A stretch of DNA of 33,594 nt from Hellea sp. (GTDB lineage Bacteria; Pseudomonadota; Alphaproteobacteria; Caulobacterales; Maricaulaceae). Both the position numbers and the translations under genes were made by a program. Of this stretch, positions 2,636 through 17,584 are shown one piece after another. Numbering within the stretch: position 1 is the first letter of the stretch; every line of letters begins with the position of its first letter. The notes under the pieces were generated by a model. That model was not told the origin of the DNA. It did not search any database and saw nothing but the letters and a program-made list of their open reading frames with translations. The stretch is from assembly GCA_020629545.1 (NCBI GenBank), contig JAHDDC010000025.1:6091-39684 (forward strand), given 5' to 3'.

Positions 2636-3199
2636 TTAGTATTCAAATTTTGAGTTTTCCAATTTCTTTCTAATGGTCGTTATATTTGTTTTTTTACCTT
2701 CAGCGGTGAATGGTGTTTTGAACGTGAACGCATACTCAGATTCGGAGTGTCCAGATAAATATTCAAGGCGAAGAGTGCTTTCTTCCCAAGTGGGCCAAAT
2801 ATCGGTCCACCACATCGCGTAATTAGGGTGCTCCATTTTTGCAAACCAGTGTTTCTTCCTTTGAATTGCTCGTAGATGTAAACCTGAATAAACAAAAGAG
2901 TATAAGGAGTATAAATCCTCCCAAACAGAAAGTGCAGATGCTTCGTAATCCTCTCCTTCAATTTCTCCCTTTATATAATAATTTGGAACCTTAAACGGGC
3001 CCCACTTGCCCCATTCTCTGTCAAAAAAAGAACAATCGTCACGATCATCAAGTGGTCTCGCGCTTTCGATATGGCCTATGGTATTTGATGCTTGATTATA
3101 CACTGATGGAGTTATGAATTGAAAACCACTTAATGCAGGGGACCTAAGATGGTCTACAGTTTGAGCAAAATTCACAATAGCAAGCATATGATTTAACAT
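2636..3199 (-). CDS. DUF3291 family protein
   Basis: A 187-residue protein that matches DUF3291, a ferredoxin-like-fold family related to antibiotic-biosynthesis monooxygenases and of unknown biochemical role. Family signatures are the N-terminal LAIVNFAQ strand followed by LRSPALSGF, then LSVWEDLYSLYSFVYSGLH and the hydrophobic MEHPNYAMWWTDI, and finally the ending YAFTFKTPF. The start may be the first ATG or M5 at 3187; family members usually begin close to the LA.(L/V)N strand, and neither start has a clear ribosome binding site. It lies 31 bp downstream of the dioxygenase-like gene on the same strand and is probably co-transcribed with it. It is AT-rich compared with acs. Its position in a block of tailoring-type genes suggests an accessory enzyme, but the function is unknown. 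Confidence 0.8.
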   Translation of the reverse strand: MLNHMLAIVNFAQTVDHLRSPALSGFQFITPSVYNQASNTIGHIESARPLDDRDDCSFFDREWGKWGPFKVPNYYIKGEIEGEDYEASALSVWEDLYSLYSFVYSGLHLRAIQRKKHWFAKMEHPNYAMWWTDIWPTWEESTLRLEYLSGHSESEYAFTFKTPFTAEGKKTNITTIRKKLENSKFEY

Positions 3200-3230
3200 T
3201 CATAATCCAGAGTTTTGGCAGATGATCCTT

Positions 3231-4070
3231 CTAAAGATGTGTCTCAAGACTTGAATTGTATACAACAGGGTATCGATTGCAATCAATTTCGCCGCCAGCA
3301 TGCAATTGTTTTACTAGCATCATTTTATGCACCCCTGGTCGAGGAGAATAAACAACATCATCTCCAGCATATCTAATTGAATAAGCTCTTCGACGTCGAC
3401 TAGTGTTGTTCGCTAAACCCCGATGTATTGTTAATGCATGAAAAGCAACAATATCGCCGACATCTACTTCAGTGCATTTGATGTTTTCTTCTGGATAATC
3501 CCTTTTTGAAAAGGGAATCTCATTGACTTTAGATGCAAAATTATCGGGTTGTAAATCTGTATATAACTTATGAGAAGAAGGCAAAAACTCCAAGGCCCCT
3601 GACTCTCTTGTTACAGTGTCTACGGGTATCCAAAAACTAATAATTTGACTTCCCATAATAGGCCAGTATGGGAGGTCATTATGCCAGTTAGTATAAAAAG
3701 GAGAGTTTGGTTCTTTAACAAAAAGATGATCGAAGAACAAGTTTACCTTTTTAGAGCGCATTAGTTGACTTGCTATACGAGGAAGATTTGAGGATCTGCA
3801 AATTTTATCTAATGCTGGATAATTTGCCCACATTTCTTGGCTGCCATGGAATGCTCCATCTTTTTCATTTTGATATGAAAATTTCTTACCCGTACGCAAT
3901 TCAAGTTCTAAATCAATAGCCTCTCTAAGTTTCATAATGTCATTTTTACCGACCACATCTCGAATTACTAAAAAGCCTTCACGGTCGAATTCATTTATAC
4001 TGTCGGTTGTTAACAACATTAAATTTCCCAATTGACTTTCCATTGCTAAATGGGAAGTATCATTATGCAT
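3231..4070 (-). CDS. Phytanoyl-CoA dioxygenase (PhyH)-like Fe(II)/2-oxoglutarate oxygenase
   Basis: A 279-residue protein with the layout of the PhyH family of non-haem iron, 2-oxoglutarate-dependent oxygenases. The N-terminal segment FDREGFLVIRDVV (28-40) is the usual family opening. WHNDLPYWP supplies the HxD iron ligands H130 and D132. IISFWIPVDTVTRESGALEFLPSSH is the conserved core strand and turn. The distal histidine is H216 in FHALTIHRG, and an arginine-rich strand (RRRRAYSIRY) follows where the 2-oxoglutarate-binding Arg is expected. All key residues are present, so it should be active. PhyH enzymes hydroxylate or otherwise oxidise fatty-acyl, amino-acid or carrier-bound intermediates. 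Transcription is divergent from the ATP-grasp gene, and DUF3291 follows. The substrate cannot be read from the sequence. Confidence 0.88.
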   Translation of the reverse strand: MHNDTSHLAMESQLGNLMLLTTDSINEFDREGFLVIRDVVGKNDIMKLREAIDLELELRTGKKFSYQNEKDGAFHGSQEMWANYPALDKICRSSNLPRIASQLMRSKKVNLFFDHLFVKEPNSPFYTNWHNDLPYWPIMGSQIISFWIPVDTVTRESGALEFLPSSHKLYTDLQPDNFASKVNEIPFSKRDYPEENIKCTEVDVGDIVAFHALTIHRGLANNTSRRRRAYSIRYAGDDVVYSPRPGVHKMMLVKQLHAGGEIDCNRYPVVYNSSLETHL

Positions 4071-4076
4071 TCAAAT

Positions 4077-4089
4077 ATACAATTTGTAT
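4077..4089. promoter_or_regulatory. Perfect 13-bp palindrome in divergent promoter region
   Basis: ATACAATTTGTAT is a perfect odd-centred palindrome starting 7 bp upstream of the dioxygenase start codon. It lies inside the 134-bp AT-rich gap shared with the divergent ATP-grasp gene. Its position suits a repressor operator for the minus-strand gene. In such AT-rich DNA a palindrome of this size may be chance, and no regulator gene lies nearby. Confidence 0.3.
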
Positions 4090-4204
4090 TTGAAGCGAAA
4101 GCGTAATATTTAATATATTCATGTTGCAAGTACTTAAACTTTATAAGCAGAACAAGATAAGTTTTGTAATTGTCGTTGCAAATATTATTTGAAGGAAGAA
4201 AAAG

Positions 4205-5089
4205 TTGGAAATTGGCCTTATTACAACAGATTTCTTGGGGAAGCTTTCAGATAATATAGAATTTCCATATGTGTCGAATGATGACCTTCTTTTGGTGAAG
4301 GAACTCAAAGAACGTGACTTTCAAGTGACATCTATTAATTGGGGGGCTGACTTAAGTAAATACCTTAGTATGGATGTATATTTAGTTCGTTCTCCGTTAG
4401 ATTACATCTTAGACAAAGACAAATTTATCACTTGGTTGGATGAGTTAAGGGCTCATAACAAGCTTATTATTAATTCATTTTCGACGATAAATTGGAACTG
4501 CGATAAAAGTTACTTGGCTGACCTCGCTAAATCTGGAGTATCGGTTATTCCTACCAAGTATGTTGAGCGTGATAATCAACTTAGTCTTATTGATCATATT
4601 GGTGATTTAGACTGGGAGGATATCGTAATAAAACGTACTGTTTCAGCGGGGGCGCACTTTATGAATCGTGTTAAGAGGGATGATTATAAAAAGTTTGAAA
4701 AAAAATTCATGAAAATGAGATCAGAAAGCGATCTGATGATACAGCCTTTCCTCGACGAAATTACTCGAGTAGGGGAATGGTCCCTCATATTTTTTGGAAT
4801 GACTTTCTCGCATGCGGTCAGGAAAATGCCCAAAAATGGAGACTATAGAGTACAAGAACAGCATGGTGGGTATATTGTTATTGAAACTCCGCCGGATTGG
4901 GTCATTGATAAAGCTTACGAAATACTCTCCAAAACAGACGATACCTTAACTTATGCAAGGGTTGATGGTTGCGAAGTTAACGGTGAATTTCTTCTGATAG
5001 AATTAGAGTTGATAGAGCCTGAATTATTTTTCCGAACATCCAAAGATGCCGCAAGTAAATGTGCGGATGCAATTCAGCGTTTAGCTTAA
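4205..5089 (+). CDS. ATP-grasp ligase, DcsG / RimK-like (COG0189)
   Basis: A 294-residue ATP-grasp enzyme. It has the layout of the DcsG-like family (DcsG closes the ring in D-cycloserine synthesis), which is related to glutathione synthetase and RimK. Typical marks are the early VRSPLDYI, the ...FSTINWNCDKSYL segment where family members carry N-x-K-x-Y-L, the nucleotide-binding strand DIVIKRTVSAGAHF, the LMIQPFLDEI strand, GEWSLIFFGMTFSHAVRK, and the metal-binding end YARVDGCEVNG...LIELELIEPELFF. The enzyme should couple ATP hydrolysis to amide or peptide bond formation through an acyl phosphate. The TTG start is supported by GAAGGAAG about 8 bases upstream. It is the only plus-strand gene in the AT-rich block. 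Many DcsG-like proteins sit outside cycloserine clusters, and no other dcs gene is seen, so the product is unknown. Confidence 0.85.
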   Translation: MEIGLITTDFLGKLSDNIEFPYVSNDDLLLVKELKERDFQVTSINWGADLSKYLSMDVYLVRSPLDYILDKDKFITWLDELRAHNKLIINSFSTINWNCDKSYLADLAKSGVSVIPTKYVERDNQLSLIDHIGDLDWEDIVIKRTVSAGAHFMNRVKRDDYKKFEKKFMKMRSESDLMIQPFLDEITRVGEWSLIFFGMTFSHAVRKMPKNGDYRVQEQHGGYIVIETPPDWVIDKAYEILSKTDDTLTYARVDGCEVNGEFLLIELELIEPELFFRTSKDAASKCADAIQRLA

Positions 5090-5157
5090 TTTTTATAAAG
5101 TTGCTGAAACCTTAAAAGAGCTTTGTATTGGCTTGACAACTCCGAAAATGTTGGTTC

Positions 5158-6234
5158 TCAGACTAATAACCAACTTTCTTCATGGCCCTTTTTGCCAAGA
5201 TGATCTTTATGGCTTTTTATATTGTTCTGTATAATATTTGCTACGGCGATAGCATTTTTTTCTACGAATGTTAGTGTGAGATGTTTGCCAGGAGTGCTAA
5301 AAATTTTAAAATTTGATAATGCTAACTTGAACCAGTCACTTACATAAGTATGATCCTCAGCCCCCTCAGGGATGATAAGGCTAATTGGGTGGTTTAATGG
5401 GCTAATAGTGTTCTTTGCTCTTAATTTTGACATAGATAAAATATTATTGTAGCGATGCATTAGCGAGGAGTTATCTTGAAAAGCTGCATATTGATTATGT
5501 TTTCTGGCTTCGTTAGTTAGAAATTGAATTTTATCAAATAGCTCCATTTCCGTAAACTCATGCATTTGCATGATTTTTGCCGTAAACCGCCAACCAAATA
5601 AAGTTCCGATATACAACTTCCAGAACTCCTTATGCGACCCGATGTTATCATAGCTATCCTTGAAAAAATCTGATGGTAATATAGTATCTATAAGTGTCAA
5701 GGAACCCACCTTATGTCCAAGTTTCAGAAAATGTCTTGCTATTTCAATTGCTAAAAGTCCCCCTGTAGAGAATCCAGATAAATGGTAAGGTTGTGTCGCC
5801 CCTGATGTAAGCATTTTCGAAGCATAAAATTCGGCAATTTCTTCCATTGTGGAAGGTAATTCCCAAGCTCCACTGTAATTTGGGGGGCATACCGCCATTA
5901 CGGCTGTTGATTTGGGAAAATGCGGAACTAATTTTGAATAACATGCGAAGTGTCCCGTTAGGGGGTGTATACAAAATAAGGTTTCTGTTGAGCCAAGGCT
6001 TTTGCTTAACGTAAGAATAGATGTCGTTTGATCATTGCTGTCATCGAGATATTCAAGAGGTGTTTGGCGGACGATTTCTTCAACTTTTTTGTGATTTTTC
6101 TCTATAAATGCTTGGAAAGCTTTCGAGGTTTCCTCGATTGGTCGGGAGAAAGTAAGACGTTTATCAACCAAATAAATGCTACATTTCTCTATTGAAAGGA
6201 AATTACATAAACTTAAAGTGTCAATACCTGACAT
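5158..6234 (-). CDS. Thioesterase-domain alpha/beta hydrolase with unusual N-terminal extension
   Basis: The C-terminal ~270 residues form an NRPS/PKS-type thioesterase. FCIHPLTGHFACY is the oxyanion strand. The nucleophile elbow GFSTGG has S156, LTLIDTILP supplies acid D183, and PGKHLTL supplies H318. It should release or edit a thioester-bound chain. The first ~45 residues resemble the second half of a YiiD_C-type hot-dog thioesterase domain (IYLVDKRLTFSRPI against the family's strand and YLRP turn), but the front half is missing. The ATG has a good AGGAC site upstream, so translation probably does start here. No NRPS or PKS is present in the window to supply a substrate. MaoC-like and BtrH-like genes lie upstream on the same strand, 73 bp and further away, and are probably in one transcript. 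Confidence 0.82.
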   Translation of the reverse strand: MSGIDTLSLCNFLSIEKCSIYLVDKRLTFSRPIEETSKAFQAFIEKNHKKVEEIVRQTPLEYLDDSNDQTTSILTLSKSLGSTETLFCIHPLTGHFACYSKLVPHFPKSTAVMAVCPPNYSGAWELPSTMEEIAEFYASKMLTSGATQPYHLSGFSTGGLLAIEIARHFLKLGHKVGSLTLIDTILPSDFFKDSYDNIGSHKEFWKLYIGTLFGWRFTAKIMQMHEFTEMELFDKIQFLTNEARKHNQYAAFQDNSSLMHRYNNILSMSKLRAKNTISPLNHPISLIIPEGAEDHTYVSDWFKLALSNFKIFSTPGKHLTLTFVEKNAIAVANIIQNNIKSHKDHLGKKGHEESWLLV

Positions 6235-6307
6235 AATTGTCCTGTCTTTGATGTGTTTTAATATATCTAATATATATGGCGGATTTACTCTATTATTGAA
6301 ACGAAAA

Positions 6308-7117
6308 TTATGTGCCTTTCAGGGTCAGCACTATATCGCAACGTAAAACAGGTTTCTCATTTATATCAAGCTGCAACGATACAAACCCTGATGCACCATT
6401 TTTCTTTACAACTGGCTCAGAGACATTAATTGTAAATTCGCAGTTTTCAAAATCCCATATCTTATTGTTTTTTGCTAACATAATTTGAGAGTTTATGTAC
6501 ACAGTATGACGGCTATGAACCAACATTGGATCAACTAAATGAGGAATGTAATTTTCGGGAAAAACCACTTTTATAGCACTTCCTTCCCCTGAGATATCAC
6601 TAATTTTTATAAATTCAGACACCATAATTGCATCTAAACAAACCCATAAATCTGCAGTGTTTATGCGCTTATTGGAAATAGTCAGATCAAAAAAATTTGA
6701 AATCTGTTTTTTACTTATCTTTGCGTGATTAGTTGATTTGTTCTGAGTATTTGTTGGCAGGTCAGAGTGTTTGCTAAATGTAAGATAGGAGAGGACTACA
6801 TTCTCTTGCAAGCTTCTCAGTTCTCCAAAACACTTATTATTTTTTGGCTCTTCCCAAACGACTTTCACAATCTCGTTAACTGGCGTAGGTTCGCGAAGCT
6901 TTACATCAAAACGCAACCATCCCCCTGCATCAAAACAATCGTTAAACTTTGAAACAGATATTTTTGTTGGTAACATGGACAACATCCCGTGGGCAAAAAT
7001 TGTCTTTGCTCCAAAAGCATGTGCAACATTAACGTCAAAGTGTAGTGGGTTCCAATCGCCTGAAAATTCAGCCCAATTTCGTACATCGTCTTCAGATAAA
7101 ACAAAGTTTTCAGTCAT
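6308..7117 (-). CDS. MaoC-like hot-dog dehydratase/hydratase
   Basis: A 269-residue protein whose N-terminal half is a MaoC/(R)-hydratase hot-dog domain. The active-site motif FSGDWNPLHFD carries the expected Asp (D21) and His (H26). It is followed by FGAKTIFAHGML, the family's substrate-tunnel helix. The C-terminal half has a similar length and strand pattern without the motif, consistent with a degenerate second hot-dog domain as in two-domain hydratases. The family hydrates or dehydrates enoyl or 3-hydroxyacyl thioesters on CoA or a carrier protein. An AGGA site lies ~9 bases before the ATG. It is flanked on the same strand by the BtrH-like gene (48 bp upstream) and the thioesterase (73 bp downstream), pointing to acyl-thioester chemistry in a biosynthetic pathway. 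Confidence 0.82.
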   Translation of the reverse strand: MTENFVLSEDDVRNWAEFSGDWNPLHFDVNVAHAFGAKTIFAHGMLSMLPTKISVSKFNDCFDAGGWLRFDVKLREPTPVNEIVKVVWEEPKNNKCFGELRSLQENVVLSYLTFSKHSDLPTNTQNKSTNHAKISKKQISNFFDLTISNKRINTADLWVCLDAIMVSEFIKISDISGEGSAIKVVFPENYIPHLVDPMLVHSRHTVYINSQIMLAKNNKIWDFENCEFTINVSEPVVKKNGASGFVSLQLDINEKPVLRCDIVLTLKGT

Positions 7118-7165
7118 TGGGATGTTCCTGTTTTTCTGTCTGCATTACAGTAGTAGCCACCATTA

Positions 7166-8092
7166 TTATTGCGCGGATAAGTGTTTCCAAAACGCCGCTT
7201 GTTGGGTTTCTATTAGTTTGAATTTTTTCTGAATACGGTCAAGAATATTCTCGTCCAGTGTGGCTTGATACTTTAAGGCTAAGATACTTAACTCTCTCCA
7301 ATACTTTTCAACTTCATAAGCAAATTCCATTGTTTGTTTACTATAACACGCTTCCTCCAGCGCTCGTTGTAAAAGACGCATGTTCGGCAAAATGAACAAA
7401 ACATTGATTATTTCAAATATCCTTCGAGCGGCCATTCTGCTTCGGTTGTTGGCGGGTGAAAGAGCGTCATCACAAGATTTAAAATATTGTTGAATTGCAT
7501 AGCGGTGTAGCTCATCTTTAGTATTTGAGAGAGCCTGTCGACTGATTTCGTGTCTGATTTCAGAGGGAGCCTGTAAACTACTGTCTATTAGCATATAGAA
7601 CAGTGTCCCAATACTCGGTGCGAACTGATTGCCAACGATTCGTGTGAAGAGGGCTTTCTGCATGTCATCCAGTGATAATATGCAATGGCCTGAGATTGGC
7701 ACTCGATCCATGATTAGGGGGTCAAAAATATCAAATGTTTGCGTATTCTGGCAATACTTATTAACAACTATAGCATGTATGTAGCTTTCTCTTTGCTGAT
7801 ATATTTCATGGTACTTCATATAAGAGGAATTTACCCACAAAACAATTGAGCCCACCGAGTCTAGTGCATTACAAAGAGTTGTGAGCCAGCTGTTGTCTAA
7901 TTTAAGTCTGTCGCTTAAAAGCGTTCCGCCAAAACGACTGATTGTAACTCTACATGTTTCAATAGAGTCAAAGTTAATTTCAGGGAAGCCATGCTCATCT
8001 AAACCGCTACGCAATAAAAAACCGCTTCCGTATAATAGGAAATTTGGCTCATGGAATGCACAGTTAAATTGTTCTTTTAGAATATAATTCAA
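7166..8092 (-). pseudogene. BtrH-like acyltransferase, probably 5'-truncated
   Basis: The 308-residue frame from TTG at 8092 resembles the BtrH N-terminal family: cysteine-peptidase-fold acyltransferases that move an acyl group from a carrier protein in butirosin-type biosynthesis. Family-like stretches are FHEPNFLLYGSGFLLRSG, SIVLWVNSSYMKYHEIY, the YIHAIVV strand with the expected catalytic-type His, FDIFDPLIM, and LSLDDMQKALFTR. The helical C-terminal half fits the partner domain. The conserved Cys-containing segment of this family has a counterpart upstream of the TTG: the same frame reads TCFTGGLN, with Cys at 8105-8107. However, the frame reaches a TAA at 8138-8140 with no ATG, GTG or TTG start before that Cys. 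The gene therefore seems to have lost its start, and the product from TTG 8092 would lack its nucleophile. A non-standard start is the alternative. Confidence 0.55.
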
Positions 8093-8165
8093 ACCACCCG
8101 TGAAACAAGTTGCCGCCGTCGTCTTGCTAAAAGGAAATTAAGGGTTTGTAAGCATACCTGTTGTA

Positions 8166-9239
8166 GTGTCTACGGCCCATCATCCGATTGAATTCACGGA
8201 TTACGTGGACCAGCGGCAATTTCGTCAAACCGATAATGCTGGGTTGAGAAGCGTCGTATCTTATTCTCTGAAAGAAGGTGTAAACAAAGAGGTCAAACAA
8301 TGGGCTTTCGAATTCTATAACGGAGTTGCCCATCAATTGATGACTGATCTGATGGTGTTTGAATATGCGCATATGCTCAAACGCGTATTGAGGCAAACAC
8401 GAGAGACAATATTAAACGGCGTAACTCATCCAATCAAAAACAGCGTCGATAGAGCAAAATCTGGTGTCGAAACTTTATGGACTAAACTAGATGATGCTTA
8501 TGATAACCATATAAATGGTATTCCCGTAAAGTATGATGAACTTTTGTCCGCAGCAATTAAGGCAAAAATGAATACGAGAGCTGCGTCGAACCGGATGAGC
8601 CTGATTCATTTCAGCGCAACGCTGTTTGAGCACGCGGATAAGCTTGATTCAATTAATCTAAAGGCTGTCGAGAACGTTCGCCTCAAGCAGAATGGCATCG
8701 CGGTAGGTGAATTGATTAATGCTCAAGCACTGATTGCGGCTAGCAAACGCGATGTCGAAAAAGGAGTAGAACTTAATGCAACACCTAAACTAACGAAATT
8801 ATTCCTCGCCAATCGTTTTGAAGATACCATCCTAGACAGCTATTCAAAAAAGGAAACATTTGTCATCGAGACCATTTTTGATGAAATTCTTGAAAACGTA
8901 GCAACGCACGGTTTGGCTAATGAGAACAATAAAGTACCAGTTAGGCTAGAAGTCCAGGAGGGAATTAACGGCTGGGAGTTAACTTTCGCCAATCAAATTA
9001 ACCCGTCAAGAAAGACCATGTGCGCCGTAAAATCACCTCAAAATGAAGAACCTCGATTTGAGAAAGTCGCGCCACAGAACACAACCGGTCAAGCACTTGT
9101 TTCACAAATGTTAGAAATGCTCTCAATCGGCGAAATTTATACGCGCAAAATATGCGTCGAAGATAGTCTACACGAAAACAAGCTTACACCTGAGTACCAG
9201 GTAAAACTAATTCTTTCTCATACATGGAGTGAGATGTGA
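8166..9239 (+). CDS. Histidine-kinase-like GHKL ATPase protein (gene 1 of three-gene system)
   Basis: A 357-residue soluble protein with no sensor or membrane segment. The region around H88 (GVTHPIKNSV, in a helical stretch 65-110) resembles the H-box of a dimerisation/phosphoacceptor helix. The C-terminal ~130 residues look like a divergent GHKL ATPase. FDEILENVATHG gives an N-box with E240, N244 and H248. LTFANQI replaces the usual DxGxG strand, as in several atypical kinases. NTTGQALVSQM near G308 serves as the G2 box, followed by a final YQVKLIL strand. It probably binds ATP; autophosphorylation is inferred. The GTG start has no good Shine-Dalgarno, and the frame is open only back to 8142, so the 5' end may be incomplete. 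It overlaps the next gene by GTGA, preceded by a GGAGTGAG site. An unrecognised gene apart from these motifs. Confidence 0.7.
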   Translation: MSTAHHPIEFTDYVDQRQFRQTDNAGLRSVVSYSLKEGVNKEVKQWAFEFYNGVAHQLMTDLMVFEYAHMLKRVLRQTRETILNGVTHPIKNSVDRAKSGVETLWTKLDDAYDNHINGIPVKYDELLSAAIKAKMNTRAASNRMSLIHFSATLFEHADKLDSINLKAVENVRLKQNGIAVGELINAQALIAASKRDVEKGVELNATPKLTKLFLANRFEDTILDSYSKKETFVIETIFDEILENVATHGLANENNKVPVRLEVQEGINGWELTFANQINPSRKTMCAVKSPQNEEPRFEKVAPQNTTGQALVSQMLEMLSIGEIYTRKICVEDSLHENKLTPEYQVKLILSHTWSEM

Positions 9240-11140
9240 TCGAAAATTCAACAGGCAAATTGCGTCTTATGATGCTGGACGATGCGCCTTCGTTACGCGA
9301 AATTGGGAGTGTGCCAACTTTGGGATTTGGTTTTGGCAAGGCCTCAAGAAGGATTGTTAGTCGAAACTTTCGATTGGAATGGTTATTCGACGAGTTTGGG
9401 GCAAACGCCTATTTCCAATCACTTATGACTGGACGCGCTGAATCTATAAGACGGGCGACACCGCCTTTAGAGTATGCTCATATCGTCCTCTTTGACTACC
9501 GGCTTACCCAGAGCCAAGAGATCTGGCAAGAATTGGACTCGCAACCAGGTTTTCGTGAGGCCGTCGCTGCAATCGATCCTCTCGGCGAATGGGGAACAAT
9601 GAGAGCGTATTCAGGGAGATGGAAGAAAGACCGCCGAGTGGGTGCTGAACCAAAAACCGGATTTGGTGAGCGCAGCGGATGCCAGTTAGGAACTCTAATT
9701 TCCTTGGCGAATTCGGGATTGCCTTCAGTCGGCATACCGCAGACTGTAACACCTAACAGTTCGGAAACGGCAGCATTGGAATGGGTTGCAAATATAACAT
9801 TAAGGGGTGCATTTAATGAGAAAGAAGGGGCATTGGCCGACTGGATGCAACTATTTGAGAAAGCCCTTCCACGCCTCAGAAAACAAATACTTTATCTCGC
9901 AAAAACAGGTTTAATCGCAGTTGACTTGAAAAAGTTATTGGAAGCAATCGAGATGATAAAGTCGGAGGACTTTGACGTTTCATCGACACTAACAATAGAA
10001 AGCGGTGCTGGATTTGAACAATTGCGTCTAGAGGCCATTTGTTTTGATTTGTTGTACGAACTCACTCATGATGGAAAACTTTTACCGCGAACGAGGTTAA
10101 AAAGCTCGACAGATTCTCCTATTTCATTTTTGGATCAATTGTCCTCGTCCACAACTGGCAACCAAGCCTCTGTCTTAGGAAAGGCCATTGAGTTGAGTGA
10201 CGTTTTTCAAAGAACATTTGAGAGCCAAAACCACATCAGGCGACGCGATGTATCTAGAGAAGTGTATTCAATTTGGGGCGCCAACAGTAGAGATAATAAC
10301 AAGAATCGAACGCTAACTGAAGATACCGTCGATTGGTTAAAACGATGGGGAGTTAATTTGGAAACCCTGGAGAAACAAGTATGTGCCGGGGAAATGATCA
10401 AGTTCAATGGAGATAACGCTCCATTTACGTTGAGGTCTTTAAAGGATGAGGCCAGAGGACAGCCAATAATTGCTCGTTATGCGGCCCTGTCCCTTGCAAT
10501 TTATACGGAAAAAGTCAGAGCTGGACTGTCTTCGCGACGGCAGGAAATGGCAATGATGGAACTGTTGGAATTTTTTGACAGTGATACCAGCGAAAACATA
10601 CACTGGCCCGACCTCGATGTATTGCGAGGCGTGTGGTTGTCAGACGAAAAAATCTCTTATGCAAAAGCCATTATAGGGAGAGAAAAAGATGCAAGGTCTA
10701 AACTTGAAGAATTGAGAGACTGTTTGGGAAGTTCCCTGTACACCATGCAACACGCTCTTGGTCTAACTTCGTTACCAAGCCCTCGAATACAGGATGACGA
10801 AGGCAACGCGATAGATGACCACAGAAGTTTTGGAACTTTGATAAAGTCAAATGCCCTGCAAGACGTGCTTGATGTATATTATAGCGTGGCTGCACCGAGT
10901 CCGCCTAGACTATTGATGTGGAGCGAACGAAAAACCGGACAGGCGTCGGATGTAAATAGACCTTTGGACAGATTAGAAGACGGCATGTCTATATCACCCA
11001 CTAAATTATTTAGTGGCGTCTTAAATCAAAAGGGAAGTCTTCAACCAGGAGAAGGTCGAATTATTACAATGTTGGCATTGCATCATTCTTTTGCTCGTCA
11101 ATATTGGCCTGATTGGATGATCGAGGGAGAACAATTGTGA
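9236..11140 (+). CDS. Large protein with divergent receiver-like N-terminus (gene 2 of three-gene system)
   Basis: A 634-residue cytoplasmic protein. The first ~185 residues resemble a response-regulator receiver: RLMMLDD ends in the acidic pair D15-D16, HIVLFDYRL gives a candidate phosphoacceptor D87, and LPSVGIPQT ends near T170 where the switch Thr would lie. The gap between D87 and the last strand is much longer than in ordinary receivers, so this would be a receiver with a large insertion. The remaining ~440 residues are mostly helical, with no transmembrane segment and no motif I recognise (one charged-aromatic patch LHHSFARQYWPDWM lies near the end). It is translationally coupled to the kinase-like gene through GTGA at 9236 and to the next gene by GTGA at 11137. 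The natural reading is a phosphorelay or ATP-gated partner of gene 1. The output domain is unknown. Confidence 0.65.
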   Translation: MIENSTGKLRLMMLDDAPSLREIGSVPTLGFGFGKASRRIVSRNFRLEWLFDEFGANAYFQSLMTGRAESIRRATPPLEYAHIVLFDYRLTQSQEIWQELDSQPGFREAVAAIDPLGEWGTMRAYSGRWKKDRRVGAEPKTGFGERSGCQLGTLISLANSGLPSVGIPQTVTPNSSETAALEWVANITLRGAFNEKEGALADWMQLFEKALPRLRKQILYLAKTGLIAVDLKKLLEAIEMIKSEDFDVSSTLTIESGAGFEQLRLEAICFDLLYELTHDGKLLPRTRLKSSTDSPISFLDQLSSSTTGNQASVLGKAIELSDVFQRTFESQNHIRRRDVSREVYSIWGANSRDNNKNRTLTEDTVDWLKRWGVNLETLEKQVCAGEMIKFNGDNAPFTLRSLKDEARGQPIIARYAALSLAIYTEKVRAGLSSRRQEMAMMELLEFFDSDTSENIHWPDLDVLRGVWLSDEKISYAKAIIGREKDARSKLEELRDCLGSSLYTMQHALGLTSLPSPRIQDDEGNAIDDHRSFGTLIKSNALQDVLDVYYSVAAPSPPRLLMWSERKTGQASDVNRPLDRLEDGMSISPTKLFSGVLNQKGSLQPGEGRIITMLALHHSFARQYWPDWMIEGEQL

Positions 11141-11883
11141 AGCCATTCGAAAACCCTTTATTTGCTGAGTATAGACGATTTGAAGGAGATGTTGGTATTT
11201 ACTTCGAAGACCGTTTGTTCCGAAGTTGCCTTAAAACTTTCTCTCAAAAAAAAATGATAGGCGTGTTGGCACAACGTCGTCATCTCTCATGCTTGTTCAC
11301 GTCGTTTTGTGACACTATATATCCAACGCTATCGGACGAAAGCCATCGAAAGCTTGTCCAAGAAATAGTGAGAGAGGAATATCTGGAAGAGAATCATCGT
11401 GAAGCCTTTGTTCAAGAACTAATTAATCTAGGCATGTCTCGTCAGGAGATAAGAAACACCCAATACACCGATGGAACATTGAAAGCCGGCCAACGCCTTA
11501 TCAAGTTTGCACTTGAATGTGGACGACGTGAACAAATATATGCTTTATGCGCGCTTCGTTTTTTTGCAGAATTATTGGCTGGTGACGAGTTCAATTTTTT
11601 CTTCCAACAGTTGTTTGGAAACCAAAAAAGGAAACGCAAGAAATCGGTCTTCTTAGGTCCACATATTGACCTTGATTTAGCAGGTTCAGGCGGGCCTAAT
11701 GACGGCCACGCAGAGAGATATTTGACGCCGATCGCGGAATTGCTGGTGTCAAAAGACGATCTTGCGACTGCCAAACATGCCATAGTCGACGCAGCAAATA
11801 TACGGGCTTATTTTTATGGCCAATATTGTGGTAATATGATGATGAAAAAATCAGAAATTAAAAAGGCCGCCCAAAATGTATGA
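11137..11883 (+). CDS. Haem-oxygenase-like putative diiron protein (gene 3 of three-gene system)
   Basis: A 248-residue helical protein resembling the iron-containing redox / haem-oxygenase-like diiron oxidase group. The helix VREEYLEENHREAFVQEL gives Glu80/81/84 with H87 and is followed by LGM, as in the family (E..x..H then lGl). FFAELLAGDEF gives E145. HIDLDLA followed by GHAERYLTPI gives H176, D180 and H191, close to the H-x3-D-and-H end of the fold. Known members catalyse diverse O2-dependent oxidations of small molecules. The GTG at 11137 is preferred because it overlaps the previous stop as GTGA and has GAGGGAG upstream; a TTG at 11113 in the same frame would force a longer overlap. 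A basic insert KRKRKK (164-169) precedes the last helices. The substrate and the link to the kinase-like pair are unknown. Confidence 0.65.
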   Translation: MKPFENPLFAEYRRFEGDVGIYFEDRLFRSCLKTFSQKKMIGVLAQRRHLSCLFTSFCDTIYPTLSDESHRKLVQEIVREEYLEENHREAFVQELINLGMSRQEIRNTQYTDGTLKAGQRLIKFALECGRREQIYALCALRFFAELLAGDEFNFFFQQLFGNQKRKRKKSVFLGPHIDLDLAGSGGPNDGHAERYLTPIAELLVSKDDLATAKHAIVDAANIRAYFYGQYCGNMMMKKSEIKKAAQNV

Positions 11884-12298: not shown

Positions 12299-13612
12299 TC
12301 AGCGCAGTCCCAATTTCCTTTTCAATTTCCGCCCAAAAATAAACACCATGTATACAATTATAGGCGCGGCGATTCCGGTCATCAAATCTGCCTGTAGTGA
12401 GACCCCTGCTAAATTCAGAAATTTAGCTAAGGTTGAAAAAATTCCGATCGCGTAATAGCTTATTGCGACAACGGATAGAGCTTCGACAGTTTGCTGAAGT
12501 TTTATTTGCGTATCGGCTCGTCGATTCATGGAGTCGAGCACCAGCGCATTCTGATTTTGGACTTGAACATCAATCTTTGTCCGGAAAAGAGCAGATGTTC
12601 GCGCGATCCTTTGTTCAAGTTTGTCGAGCCTTGTGGCAGTTGCATCGTTTGTGTTCATTGCGGGAATGAAGCGTCGCCTGATAAAATTTGACAGCCTTTG
12701 TGCGCCTTGAATTCTTTGTTCATTGATTTCTTCGAGGCGCCGGAAAACGATTTGTCCATAGGCCTTGGTGGCATCATATCGGTTGCTGTCTCGTGTGACG
12801 AGATTGTCTACTCTTGACGAAAGAGCTATCAGCTTTTCAAGCAAAGCCTTATCATCTGGACGACCTGAGTGCCCTTCTTCATGAGCTAGTATATTGCTCA
12901 GCTCGTCTTCGAGCGCAGCAATTCTTCTGTTTGTTGCATAGTTTGTTAGTTGTCCCATCTGAGCCAGGACCCGATAGGTTTCTATGTCGAGTATGCGCTG
13001 AATTAATCGACCCAGGCGGAATGGACCCAAATTTCCATCTTTTACAACAATGCGTGTGAAACCATCACCCTGAATTCTAAAGTCGGACCAGATGACGGCA
13101 TTTCGGTCGCAGACAAATCCGCCAGCAACGGGAGGAGATTGGAAGCAATCCGGTGATGATGGCTTTTCCAGATAATTCTTATCCACCGGCGTCACATGTA
13201 TGTGCGTCGCCACCAGGCTATCTTCGAAATGATTGGCTGTCCATTGTTTTGGTAGGCCCTCAATAGACGTTCTAGCGAATTCGCTTTTCTCTGATGCCCT
13301 ACTGCAAAAGGTAAAAGTTTCGAATTCAGAATGGCGTTCCCATTTTACTTTCAGCTTGTCGTTCGTCCCCAGAAAAAACAAATCATTTTGTTCAAGGGTT
13401 TTAAGCCCGGCAAATGAAATAAGCTCTTCCAGACGATCACGATTTATGTGTTCACCTTTTTCCGACGCGAGGAAAACGACATAACTACAAACCGTTCTCT
13501 CAGGCATGGGTAAAGGGGGATGTTGATAAAGCTCTCTATAGGCATCAGATCGCAAGGAACCAATTTCTGACCAACGCAGGGATAGTGTTGGTCTGTCGTT
13601 AGTCCGTTTCAT
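12299..13612 (-). CDS. DUF3422 family membrane-anchored protein
   Basis: A 437-residue protein matching DUF3422 (COG4949, predicted membrane-anchored, mostly in proteobacteria). Features are the N-terminal HPPLPMPERTVCSYVVFL, the mid-region DFRIQGDGFTRIVVKDGNLGP-type strand set, GRLIQRILDIETYRVLAQMG, a long helical stalk (roughly 210-370) likely to form coiled coils, and two C-terminal membrane spans (about 375-398 and 409-427) ending in a basic tail. The bulk is therefore probably cytoplasmic with a C-terminal anchor. Its biochemical role is unknown. It overlaps the preceding small gene by 14 bases and lacks its own clear binding site, so it is probably translated by coupling as the last gene of the putA operon. 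Confidence 0.9.
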   Translation of the reverse strand: MKRTNDRPTLSLRWSEIGSLRSDAYRELYQHPPLPMPERTVCSYVVFLASEKGEHINRDRLEELISFAGLKTLEQNDLFFLGTNDKLKVKWERHSEFETFTFCSRASEKSEFARTSIEGLPKQWTANHFEDSLVATHIHVTPVDKNYLEKPSSPDCFQSPPVAGGFVCDRNAVIWSDFRIQGDGFTRIVVKDGNLGPFRLGRLIQRILDIETYRVLAQMGQLTNYATNRRIAALEDELSNILAHEEGHSGRPDDKALLEKLIALSSRVDNLVTRDSNRYDATKAYGQIVFRRLEEINEQRIQGAQRLSNFIRRRFIPAMNTNDATATRLDKLEQRIARTSALFRTKIDVQVQNQNALVLDSMNRRADTQIKLQQTVEALSVVAISYYAIGIFSTLAKFLNLAGVSLQADLMTGIAAPIIVYMVFIFGRKLKRKLGLR

Positions 13613-13897: not shown

Positions 13898-16800
13898 TTA
13901 CATGGCCAGCAATGTTGCATTGCCCCCCGCTGCCGTAGTGTTGACTGTGAGGGTGCGTTCAATGAAAAATCTTTCAATCTCATCATCTGAGGTCAGTATG
14001 GGCACCAGTTGACCGTTCATGGAAAGTGCCCATTCTGCCCAAATATTGATGCGCTCCTGACAGGTCAGAACTGCACCAAGCTGGAGTATATTTTCAGGAC
14101 TAAAGGGAATGCCGTCCACAAGCTGGATGAGATTTTTTTGACCAGTGGTAGCGGCTAATTTGGTTATCAATTTTTCTAGTGAGGACCGGTGTTCGTGATC
14201 TGGTGAAAGCAGGATCACGGCGTTACCGGTGGCCAGTGATATCAGCAGTTGTTGGCAGAGAACTTCTGGAAGAACCCTGTCGTCACAAAGAATAATTCCT
14301 CGGGGATTTAATTCCAGACTGTTGCTTTCCCCTGTTGGGCCAGGAAGTGTGATTTGCCTGCCTTCAGAGTATTTTATTTTTGACAGAAATGCTGTGTCAA
14401 TAACTCCAAAATGGCCTTCACAAATCTCTACAAGTTTTTGAATTTTGTCTTTATTCAGTTGACCGAGCCATGCAGTTGAGGCTGCCTCGATTGCATTAAG
14501 ATCGAGCGGTTCGACCAGATTTTCATAGGATAGTTTTTCGTTAGAATGAAAGACATCTTCCGAGGAAGTGCTCTTGGATTTGGATAAGCGCCGCACATAA
14601 TGAGGGCCTCCGGCTTTAGGCCCGGTTCCCGATAAACCCTCGCCGCCAAAGGGTTGAACGCCTACAACAGCACCGATCTGGTTCCGATTGACATAAAGAT
14701 TTCCGACACGGGCGAGACAGGAGATCTGGTCAACGCGATCGTCTATCCTAGTATGCAGCCCCATTGTCAGTCCGTAACCAAGAGAATTAATGTCCCGGAT
14801 TAGGGTTTCCAGATTTTTCTCATTAAACTTCACAATGTGTAAGACAGGGCCGAATATTTCCCTTTCCAGAACCTTTATGTCTGGGATCTCGAATGCGACG
14901 GGTCCGACAAAGACACCATTCTTTGTATTTTCATTGAGGGGAACTTCGTGAATGGTGCGATATTTTGTTTTGGACGCCGCGATATAGTTTTCCAACATGG
15001 TCCGCGCTGATATATCGATTACGGGACCCACATCTGTTGACAGATATTCAGGATTAGAAAGCGTTAGTTCCTGCATGGCCCCTGCCAGCATCGTCATGAA
15101 GGCATCAGCAACATCATCCTGGATACAGACCACACGACAGGCTGAGCAGCGTTGACCAGCAGATTGGAAAGCAGAGGCTATGACGTCGGCGACGACCTGC
15201 TCGAGCAAGGCCGTTGAATCGACAATCATGGCGTTTAGCCCGCCTGTTTCCGCGATTAACGGAATGTGGGCGCGTTCAGTCTTTATCAGTTGGCTCGCGA
15301 TTTTTTTTGCCGTCGCCGTTGACCCGGTAAAACAAACACCATGAATATCCGGATGTGCGCTTAAGTGATTGCCCAGTTCCCGGCCGTCGCCGAGGACGAG
15401 ATGAACGGCCGAGTCCGGCACCCCTGCCTGATAGAGGAGCTGGATGGCCTCATAAGCGATTAGGGGCGTTTGCGCCGCTGGCTTGCAAATGACACTATTA
15501 CCGCCCGCAAGCGCACCGATGATCTGTCCTAGGAATATTGCCAGCGGAAAGTTCCAGGGCGAGATGCAGGCGACGACCCCAAGTGGATCTCTTTCTTCAA
15601 CCTGGTTGGCATAATAGAAACAGAAATCGATAGCTTCTCGAACTTCAGCGATTGCATCCGGCCAGGTCTTGCCCGCTTCCTTGACGCAGAGCGTTAGGAG
15701 CCTGTCATAATTTTTTCCAAGCAAATATCCGACCTTGTTTAATACATTTCGTCTCTGGTCAGGCGAGAATTGGGTCACCCATTCTGATGTTCGAGCAAGA
15801 GAGACCGCAGCATCAATTGAAGCGACGTTTGTCGCTTCCCAGTATCCGGCAATTTTGCGAGTGTCATATGGGCAATTTACCTGAAATTCCCCAATTGACT
15901 GGCTGGGTTTTTTGCCCGCAATCAAGGAGTGAGCCTGTACGGATTCGAATTTACCGATCAAGCGGCTTAAACGGGCACCTACGGACGCTTGTGTGAAGTC
16001 AATGCCGCGGGCTGCCAGACGCTCACCATTAAAATGATCCCTTGGATCATGTATATTCGGATGCGGTGCCCGGGAATTCGTCGTGACCTTGTTGATCGGA
16101 TCTTCGATAATCTCCGAGATTGAGACGTCATCAGAGGTCAATTGATTGACGAAGGAGCTATTGGCTCCATTTTCAAGAAGTCGTCGGACAAGGTAGGGCA
16201 ATAAGTCCTCATGCTCTCCCACGGGCGCGTATACACGGCTTGAAACCCCGGAAACTGACTTGAGTTCCTCGTGCAGCTCTTTTCCCATTCCGTGCAGTCT
16301 CTGAAACTCATAGTTTTGGCGGGTTCCAGCCATTTGAATAATGGATGCGGCGGTTTGAGCATTGTGAGTGGCAAATCTCGGAAATATTGAGCCCGGCGCG
16401 TCGAGAAGTGTTTTAGCGCAGGCGAGATAGCTGACATCAGTGTTTTCCTTGCGTGTGAAAACAGGATAACTTTCAAGCCCCATCTCCTGAGCGCGTTTGA
16501 TTTCCGTGTCCCAATAGGCGCCTTTGACTAGACGAATATTGAGAATATTGGGCTTTTGTTCGTATAGCCTGATCAAGTGCTGAATAACGGGTATGGCGCG
16601 GCGTTGATAAGCCTGAACAACAAAACCAAGGCCATTCCAGTCGCGGAGCTCAGTTGTTTCGGAGAGCCTCTTCAGGACTTCAAGAGAGACTTCGAGGCGT
16701 TCGGCCTCTTCGGCATCAATGGTGATGTTGAGGTCATGATGTCTGGCCAGACCTGCCAATTCAACAAGTCTCCCAACTAGTTCCGGAACGCATTTCTCCT

Positions 16801-17584
16801 TTTGTACGAATTCATATCTCGGATGGAGCGCGGAAAGTTTTACTGAAAGACCTGCCTGCCCCGGTGTGAACCCTTGCTTTCCCTGATGATCCGCAATGGC
16901 CAGCAAAGCTGAACGATAGGCATCAAAATATCGATCCGCGTCAGCCTGCGTGTAAGCCGCTTCTCCAAGCATATCAAAAGAATAGGCGTCTTGAGGTCCT
17001 GCATTTTTTAGCGATTTCCTGATCGCGGCCTGAATATTCTTTCCCAATACATAATGATCACCCATCATTTGCATCACACGGAATATGGCGGAATAAAGTG
17101 CGCGATCACCAATACGGGCCGCGAGGTTTCTGGCCCGCTTTCCCCCGGTTGTTTTTATCCAGCCTTTTGTGATCCCCAGGCCAAGGGTTGCCAGATCAAC
17201 GATCCTTGACGGGCTATCGCCTCTATGACTTGACCAGTTTCCGGGTTCGATTTTATCGCGGATCAAAGAGAATGCATTTGATTTATCCGGTGTTCGGATG
17301 AGCGACTCTGCAAGTCGCATCAAAATGATGCCCTCTTCGGTCGAGAGGCCATACTCTTGCAAAAACGCGTCAATGACCGGTGTCCGGTCTGAACTGGATC
17401 GAATTTTTCTGACAAGTTTGGACGCCAGTTCGCCAGCTTCTGCCCTTTGCTCTTCTGAAATTTGACAAATGTCGAGCAAGGCAGACACAAGCTGACCTTC
17501 ATCCATTAAATAGAATTCTGAAAGATCAATCCTTGGATCTGTCTGCGAGCCCTGTTCGAAGGAGGTAAAATATTGCTTGTTCAT
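13898..17584 (-). CDS. putA: Bifunctional proline dehydrogenase / glutamate-semialdehyde dehydrogenase
   Basis: Oxidises proline to glutamate in two steps, using an FAD-dependent PRODH barrel and an NAD+-dependent aldehyde dehydrogenase that share an internal channel. The PRODH half contains RLVKGAYWD near 351-359 and YEFQRLHGMG. The ALDH half has CFTGSTATAKK, the general base in AETGG (E779) and the catalytic Cys in GQRCSA (C813). A C-terminal ALDH-like domain (~1040-1228) ends in the usual NTTAAGGNATLL. At 1228 residues it lacks the N-terminal ribbon-helix-helix of E. coli PutA, so it is a type B PutA that cannot repress its own gene; the divergent Lrp-type protein probably regulates it. 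It lies 132 bp downstream of glutamate dehydrogenase, which consumes its product. Confidence 0.97.
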   Translation of the reverse strand: MNKQYFTSFEQGSQTDPRIDLSEFYLMDEGQLVSALLDICQISEEQRAEAGELASKLVRKIRSSSDRTPVIDAFLQEYGLSTEEGIILMRLAESLIRTPDKSNAFSLIRDKIEPGNWSSHRGDSPSRIVDLATLGLGITKGWIKTTGGKRARNLAARIGDRALYSAIFRVMQMMGDHYVLGKNIQAAIRKSLKNAGPQDAYSFDMLGEAAYTQADADRYFDAYRSALLAIADHQGKQGFTPGQAGLSVKLSALHPRYEFVQKEKCVPELVGRLVELAGLARHHDLNITIDAEEAERLEVSLEVLKRLSETTELRDWNGLGFVVQAYQRRAIPVIQHLIRLYEQKPNILNIRLVKGAYWDTEIKRAQEMGLESYPVFTRKENTDVSYLACAKTLLDAPGSIFPRFATHNAQTAASIIQMAGTRQNYEFQRLHGMGKELHEELKSVSGVSSRVYAPVGEHEDLLPYLVRRLLENGANSSFVNQLTSDDVSISEIIEDPINKVTTNSRAPHPNIHDPRDHFNGERLAARGIDFTQASVGARLSRLIGKFESVQAHSLIAGKKPSQSIGEFQVNCPYDTRKIAGYWEATNVASIDAAVSLARTSEWVTQFSPDQRRNVLNKVGYLLGKNYDRLLTLCVKEAGKTWPDAIAEVREAIDFCFYYANQVEERDPLGVVACISPWNFPLAIFLGQIIGALAGGNSVICKPAAQTPLIAYEAIQLLYQAGVPDSAVHLVLGDGRELGNHLSAHPDIHGVCFTGSTATAKKIASQLIKTERAHIPLIAETGGLNAMIVDSTALLEQVVADVIASAFQSAGQRCSACRVVCIQDDVADAFMTMLAGAMQELTLSNPEYLSTDVGPVIDISARTMLENYIAASKTKYRTIHEVPLNENTKNGVFVGPVAFEIPDIKVLEREIFGPVLHIVKFNEKNLETLIRDINSLGYGLTMGLHTRIDDRVDQISCLARVGNLYVNRNQIGAVVGVQPFGGEGLSGTGPKAGGPHYVRRLSKSKSTSSEDVFHSNEKLSYENLVEPLDLNAIEAASTAWLGQLNKDKIQKLVEICEGHFGVIDTAFLSKIKYSEGRQITLPGPTGESNSLELNPRGIILCDDRVLPEVLCQQLLISLATGNAVILLSPDHEHRSSLEKLITKLAATTGQKNLIQLVDGIPFSPENILQLGAVLTCQERINIWAEWALSMNGQLVPILTSDDEIERFFIERTLTVNTTAAGGNATLLAM

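What the first reader, a model, noticed from the sequence alone, without database searches (positions are those of the whole stretch)
8166..11883. Unrecognised three-gene system: kinase-like ATPase, receiver-like protein and haem-oxygenase-like diiron protein
Seen: three plus-strand genes joined by two identical GTGA start/stop overlaps (9236 and 11137), each preceded by a GA-rich ribosome binding site, so they are made as a unit. Gene 1 has an H-box-like helix (H88) and a GHKL N-box (E240, N244, H248). Gene 2 begins with a receiver-like fold (D15-D16, D87). Gene 3 has the Glu/His pattern of haem-oxygenase-like diiron oxidases. Known: kinase/receiver pairs relay signals, and a few such pairs (for example Detocs) act in phage defence, but I know of no described system with this third component. 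Inference: signal sensing in gene 1, relay through gene 2 and an oxidative output or cofactor step in gene 3, possibly defence or stress response. It sits in accessory DNA between core metabolic blocks.
Basis: partly seen in the sequence, partly recalled or inferred. Interest (0 to 1): 0.85.

Follow-up and report, generated by a model that had tools for sequence, protein, structure and literature searches.

The report
Orphan operon ending in diiron oxidase
Three tightly joined bacterial genes end in a probable iron-dependent oxidase, preceded by two nearly relative-less proteins that may be regulators; distant cousins of the oxidase sit beside a different unexplained partner, which hints at an undescribed enzyme group.

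Summary
The three ORFs and both GTGA overlaps are real, but gene 1 has no clear ribosome binding site. Gene 3 is well supported as a haem-oxygenase-like diiron oxidase (HDO): six 3H/3C ligand positions (E80, H87, E145, H176, D180, H191) are kept in five remote relatives, whose profile finds gene 3 at 67 bits. Gene 1 as a GHKL kinase is only suggested (HATPase_c_2 at E 0.12 on a fragment; no G1 box). Gene 2 as a receiver has no statistical support. Structure predictions failed (pLDDT 33 and 35). Genes 1 and 2 had no credible relative outside their own genome where searched, so conservation of the trio cannot be shown. The five HDO relatives found (four cyanobacterial, one Solirubrobacteraceae) each lie right behind a PLD-like protein, not a kinase/receiver pair. 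Best reading: an enzyme operon whose HDO is probably controlled by divergent partners. Main rival: it belongs to the adjacent biosynthetic-looking cluster. Nothing found points to phage defence.

The parts
8166..9239 (+). gene 1, 357 aa, possible GHKL-type ATPase/kinase: H88, N-box-like DEILENVATHG (E240, N244, H248), G2-like TTGQAL at 306-311; no G1 DxGxG box
   Evidence: Pfam HATPase_c_2 E 0.12 on residues 201-357; no relatives accepted
9236..11140 (+). gene 2, 634 aa, possible receiver-like N-terminus (D15, D16, D87, T170, R190 by eye) plus about 400 aa of unknown; no family
   Evidence: no relatives found; receiver profile not significant
11137..11883 (+). gene 3, 248 aa, haem-oxygenase-like dimetal oxidase (HDO); ligand positions E80, H87, E145, H176, D180, H191 and motif QRRxLS conserved
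   Evidence: Pfam Haem_oxygenas_2 E 8.8e-6, below gathering score; alignment A2; profile of five relatives 67 bits
9236..9239 (+). GTGA stop/start overlap, genes 1-2, GGAG upstream
11137..11140 (+). GTGA stop/start overlap, genes 2-3, GAGGGAG upstream
8093..8165 (.). 73-bp gap between the divergent minus-strand gene 7166-8092 and gene 1; no consensus sigma-70 promoter found there

Best explanation
The locus is one co-translated operon whose last gene makes an HDO-type diiron (or Fe/Mn) oxidase. Genes 1 and 2 are nearly orphan proteins; I think they are most likely a degenerate two-component-like pair (a GHKL-like ATPase and a receiver-like protein with a large unknown output part) made in step with the oxidase and controlling when or on what it acts. 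Shown: the overlapping genes, the ligand set, and the relatedness of gene 3 to an HDO group that elsewhere sits behind another, unrelated PLD-like protein. Inferred: ATP binding by gene 1, the receiver fold of gene 2, and that the pair regulates gene 3. Unknown: substrate and biological purpose.
For: Tight overlaps with good ribosome binding sites for genes 2 and 3. Six 3H/3C ligand positions invariant in six of six aligned HDOs, the set described for HDOs in PMC13108848 (passages). HATPase_c_2 is a weak hit in the predicted register, and hhalign puts the gene 1 N-box on the N-box of kinases and 'IVLFDYRLT' of gene 2 on the receiver's phospho-Asp strand. The HDO relatives are also the second gene of a tight pair with a partner that matches no enzyme family clearly, in 5 of 5 loci (family scans were run on two of the five partners). 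In two of the five a divergent Ser/Thr kinase (51% identical to each other) precedes the pair.
Against: Gene 2 has no statistical similarity to receivers. Gene 1 is not clearly above shuffles with canonical kinase profiles (206 of 2000 as good or better; 22 of 300) and lacks the G1 box. Both AlphaFold models failed. No second copy of the trio was found. The review passages say that the HDOs studied so far need no protein effector, though one (MboA) needs a redox partner for a later step. The HDO relatives' partner is unrelated to genes 1 and 2, so it does not support this pair as regulators.
Confidence: 0.4

Rival explanations
1. The trio belongs to the neighbouring low-GC cluster (2636-8092: DUF3291, PhyH dioxygenase, DcsG-like ATP-grasp, thioesterase, MaoC, BtrH_N-like). 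Gene 3 is then a tailoring oxidase for a small molecule, and genes 1-2 are its regulators or further enzymes.
For: Direct adjacency across a 73-bp divergent gap; families common in natural-product clusters (the BtrH_N hit is weak, E 0.0048); characterised HDOs act mostly in natural-product biosynthesis (PMC13108848, passages).
Against: GC differs (0.36-0.41 against 0.41-0.45; third-position GC 0.275-0.379 against 0.378-0.414). In three of the five loci of HDO relatives (L008, L010, L011) the neighbours scanned are Ser/Thr kinase, Ffh, CpeS, DUF427, band-7 or ClpB; in L009 they include an SDR enzyme and in the Gloeothece plasmid a methyltransferase and an asparagine synthetase-like gene, which could be biosynthetic. 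Genes 1-2 match no enzyme family.
Confidence: 0.33
2. A phage-defence or stress system in which gene 1 senses, gene 2 relays and the HDO makes a toxic or protective product.
For: Accessory location; kinase-receiver defence systems exist (recalled: Detocs); an HDO (DtpC) protects Acinetobacter during desiccation (PMC13232832, passages).
Against: Genes 1-3 match no PADLOC model at E up to 1. Of ten window proteins scanned with PADLOC only 19748-22441, about 8 kb away, has matches under E 0.01, to CARF models over its HTH end only. No phage, plasmid or viral-contig relatives of genes 1-2.
Confidence: 0.12
3. Genes 1 and 2 are lineage-specific orphans without kinase or receiver function (motifs read by eye are chance), and only gene 3 is a conserved enzyme.
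For: No profile support for gene 2; gene 1 support is one hit at E 0.12; no relatives outside the own genome that I can credit.
Against: Gene 1 motifs fall in the right order (H88, N-box, G2-like) and register; both long frames are intact and overlapped.
Confidence: 0.15

Closest known systems
HDO superfamily (UndA, CADD, SznF, BesC, DtpC; Pfam PF14518)
   Same: 3H/3C ligand set in the order E, H, E, H, D, H
   Different: Only 26.1 bits to PF14518, below its gathering score of 28.9, and weak to the CADD model TIGR04305 (E 0.0015); 11 residues between D180 and H191 (15-17 in the relatives; 3 in CADD, recalled); operon partners unclassified
Unnamed HDO plus PLD-like pair in Cyanobacteria and Solirubrobacteraceae (L002, L008-L011)
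   Same: Closest HDO relatives found; QRRxLS motif and ligands shared; HDO is the downstream gene of a tight pair
   Different: 24-26% identity; upstream partner is a PLD-like protein unrelated to genes 1 or 2
HEF_HK / Response_reg_2 two-component-like pairs (PF19191/PF19192; PMC8011034, abstract and passages seen)
   Same: Kinase-like gene next to a gene with a loop-extended divergent receiver and no other known domain
   Different: Neither gene matches these models at E up to 1; no HATPase_c_3 match, no restriction-modification gene among the window proteins scanned; third gene is an HDO
Detocs (recalled; by title none of the 10 papers listed of 26 is about it)
   Same: Kinase-like, receiver-like and effector genes in one operon
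   Different: Gene 3 is an HDO without receiver domain, not a purine nucleoside phosphorylase

Membership tests
HDO superfamily | 3H/3C dimetal ligand set | tested here: met
   E80, H87, E145, H176, D180, H191 invariant in six of six; assignment to ligands by position, from the order in the family
HDO superfamily | Profile match | tested here: inconclusive
   PF14518 E 8.8e-6 but 26.1 bits against cut-off 28.9; much weaker matches to ferritin-like aldehyde decarbonylases (Pfam E 0.018; PDB E 0.02); profile of five relatives 67 bits
HDO superfamily | Seven-helix haem-oxygenase fold and O2-dependent oxidation | not tested
Canonical two-component system | HisKA/HATPase_c in gene 1 | tested here: inconclusive
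   only HATPase_c_2 E 0.12, 12.8 bits against cut-off 27.4, on a fragment; N-box present, G1 DxGxG absent, no acid after H88
Canonical two-component system | Response_reg receiver in gene 2 | tested here: not met
   no PF00072 hit, none at its place among 39; 298 of 2000 shuffles score as well; Lys position holds R190 by eye
HEF_HK / Response_reg_2 | match to PF19191 and PF19192 | tested here: not met
   no hit at E up to 1 (that the library holds both models was not checked)
HEF_HK / Response_reg_2 | restriction-modification genes nearby (over-represented, not obligatory) | tested here: not met
   none among the 20 window proteins scanned with Pfam; not every window ORF was scanned
Detocs | PNP effector with receiver (recalled) | tested here: not met
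   gene 3 is Haem_oxygenas_2-like
HDO plus PLD-like pair | PLD-like gene directly upstream | tested here: not met
   genes 1 and 2 unrelated to the partner profile A3

The most novel reading that the evidence does not exclude
Gene 3 belongs to an undescribed clade of HDO enzymes that serve as output modules of signalling operons: the oxidase stays while the upstream control module is swapped (PLD-like, sometimes with a Ser/Thr kinase nearby, in Cyanobacteria and Actinomycetota; a divergent GHKL/receiver-like pair here). As far as the paper searches show (open-access papers, top listings only), this would be the first HDO gated by a dedicated signalling pair.
Probability: 0.22. Interest if true: 0.75.

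Novelty: new variant of a known kind. Interest (0 to 1): 0.42.

Why it matters
HDOs are known mostly as biosynthetic enzymes, and a 2026 review says that those studied need no protein effector for O2 activation (PMC13108848, passages). A group of HDOs that is regularly the second gene behind regulatory-looking partners would widen the role of this chemistry to signalling or stress responses and bear on how O2 activation is gated, which that review calls in need of more work. As it stands the trio itself is a single instance.

Tried and rejected
A match of gene 1 at E 0.0032 in G776 was rejected: the 458-aa frame it lies in is, by reading the ORF of L004, an NtrC/NtrX-type sigma-54 regulator, not a GHKL protein. 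Pfam hits zf-CRD, RRF_GI, Sec39, Methyltrn_RNA_2 and DUF5951 at E 0.02-0.23 on genes 1 and 2, a PHROG at 0.36 and PDB hits from E 0.16 up were treated as chance. Single-sequence AlphaFold of gene 2 (pLDDT 33.3) and gene 1 (34.7) failed, so no fold search was run; the helix/strand order of the gene 1 model fits a Bergerat fold but at that confidence is not evidence. Pattern scans for genes 1 and 2 in viral contigs and for gene 2 in genome contigs (17 stretches, none a relative) gave nothing; such scans with one protein find close relatives only. Gene 1 had no genome-contig scan (both went to gene 2 and to gene 3) and gene 3 no phage search. The HDO alignment gave no viral relative (62 stretches). 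A2 profile searches in phylum samples around G826 and G825 gave 1 of 149 and 1 of 117, each the centre genome itself. Plasmid searches with the ATP-grasp and BtrH-like neighbours found six distant relatives and none; those loci were not opened. Paper searches listed no described system with an HDO behind a kinase/receiver pair; only the top listings were seen (one search had 51,342 papers, 12 listed). In two conflict-system papers no word beginning with 'oxygenase' occurs; a third was searched for other terms only.
Full report
What is there. The window lies in a 3.6-Mb draft genome of 155 contigs (completeness 91.6, contamination 7.5), so mis-binning of the contig cannot be excluded. Three plus-strand genes at 8166-9239, 9236-11140 and 11137-11883 overlap by GTGA twice. 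Genes 2 and 3 have good ribosome binding sites; gene 1 does not. The region is AT-rich against its flanks. To the left, across a 73-bp divergent gap, lies an even more AT-rich block with DUF3291, PhyH, ATP-grasp, thioesterase, MaoC and (weakly, E 0.0048) BtrH_N-like genes; further out are an acetyl-CoA synthetase-like gene on the left and DUF3422, PutA-like and glutamate dehydrogenase-like genes on the right.

Gene 3. Pfam gives Haem_oxygenas_2 at E 8.8e-6, 26.1 bits against a cut-off of 28.9. Weaker matches go to the HDO CADD (E 0.0015) and to ferritin-like aldehyde decarbonylases (E 0.013-0.02). A plasmid search found one relative, on a Gloeothece plasmid, and an alignment-based scan of the 84,980-species genome collection found four more among 45 pattern matches: Calothrix, a Lyngbya MAG, another cyanobacterial MAG and a Solirubrobacteraceae MAG. 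That scan uses two short patterns and is not exhaustive. In the alignment of all six, E80, H87, E145, H176, D180 and H191 are invariant, together with Q46-R47-R48-x-L50-S51. This fits the 3H/3C set of HDOs described in the passages that I saw of PMC13108848. A profile of the five relatives finds gene 3 at 67 bits, E 1.2e-16 with the search space set to a million sequences. The family looks rare: 1 of 398 genomes of the phylum sample (the own genome), 1 of 149 and 1 of 117 in samples around the Solirubrobacteraceae and Calothrix genomes (the centres themselves).

Company of the relatives. In 5 of 5 relatives the HDO is the second gene of a tight pair. The first gene encodes a protein of 300-356 aa, alignable among all five (24% identity between the two phyla), with weak PLD-like matches (PLDc_2 E 0.025 for the Gloeothece one, no Pfam hit for the Solirubrobacteraceae one; the latter matches DrmC at E 0.02; that DrmC is PLD-like is recalled). 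It is unrelated to genes 1 and 2. Two of the five (L008, L010) also have a divergent Ser/Thr kinase upstream, 51% identical to each other. Other neighbours scanned are Ffh, CpeS, DUF427, band-7 and ClpB in three loci, an SDR enzyme in L009 and a methyltransferase in the plasmid. So the HDO group keeps unusual, possibly regulatory company, but not the kinase/receiver company proposed.

Gene 1. A fragment (201-357) gives HATPase_c_2 at E 0.12 over the expected stretch; that E-value is for 24,736 models, and a GHKL domain had been named beforehand, so I count it as a real hint, with the caveat that I chose the fragment. Against it: the full protein gives no GHKL hit at E up to 1, the G1 box is missing, and profiles of kinases (from this genome, seeded with one from G776) are matched or beaten by 206 of 2000 (HMMER) and 22 of 300 (hhalign) shuffles. 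No relative was accepted: 2 of 385 in the class sample, one being the own genome and one a chance match in a sigma-54 regulator; 1 of 200 in the order sample, the own genome; none in plasmids, phages or viral contigs. Gene 1 was not scanned against the genome-contig collection.

Gene 2. No family in Pfam at E up to 1 for the whole protein, none for residues 1-210 at E up to 10; PF00072 finds 39 places in the genome but not this one. A profile of 40 receiver sequences (same origin) is matched by 298 of 2000 shuffles and by 43 of 300 in hhalign, though the hhalign match sets D87 on the phosphorylated Asp. By eye, the order DD, D, T, R-G-A-F is receiver-like with a long insertion; loop extensions are also how Response_reg_2 was described (PMC8011034, abstract and passages). 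Relatives: only the own genome in 99, 398 and 195 genomes (samples overlap), none in plasmids, phages, viral contigs or the genome scan.

Judgement. The enzyme call for gene 3 is well supported. The two-component reading of genes 1 and 2 is plausible for gene 1 and unproven for gene 2. The claim of an unrecognised conserved three-gene system is not established, because the trio is known from one locus and the HDO's relatives use another partner. The wider pattern, an HDO group tied to partners that do not look biosynthetic, is the more interesting lead.

Noticed in passing
window 2636-8092: AT-rich block (GC about 0.36-0.41) with DUF3291, PhyH, DcsG-like ATP-grasp (134 bits, cut-off 360), thioesterase, MaoC and weakly BtrH_N-like genes: looks like a small uncharacterised biosynthetic cluster.
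   Followed up: partly
L002 7021-8672, L008 4814-6465, L009 6883-8651, L010 7021-8699, L011 3477-5143: Conserved two-gene arrangement, PLD-like protein plus HDO, in Cyanobacteria and Solirubrobacteraceae; no named system matched (Pfam and PADLOC run on the Gloeothece and Solirubrobacteraceae pairs).
   Followed up: partly
L008 2913-4370 and L010 5292-6815: Divergent Ser/Thr kinase genes, 51% identical, directly upstream of the PLD-like/HDO pair.
   Followed up: partly
window 13898-17584: The genome has a second PutA-like protein (contig C5) only 50% identical; with 7.5% contamination this may be a paralogue or a mis-binned contig.
   Followed up: no
window 12299-13612: DUF3422 gene next to the trio; found in 2 of 10 genomes of the genus, own genome included, the other at 50% identity.
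   Followed up: no
window 19748-22441: 897-aa LuxR-type regulator with a STAND-like NTPase part beside oxoprolinase-like genes; PADLOC CARF models match its HTH end at E 1.9e-5.
   Followed up: no
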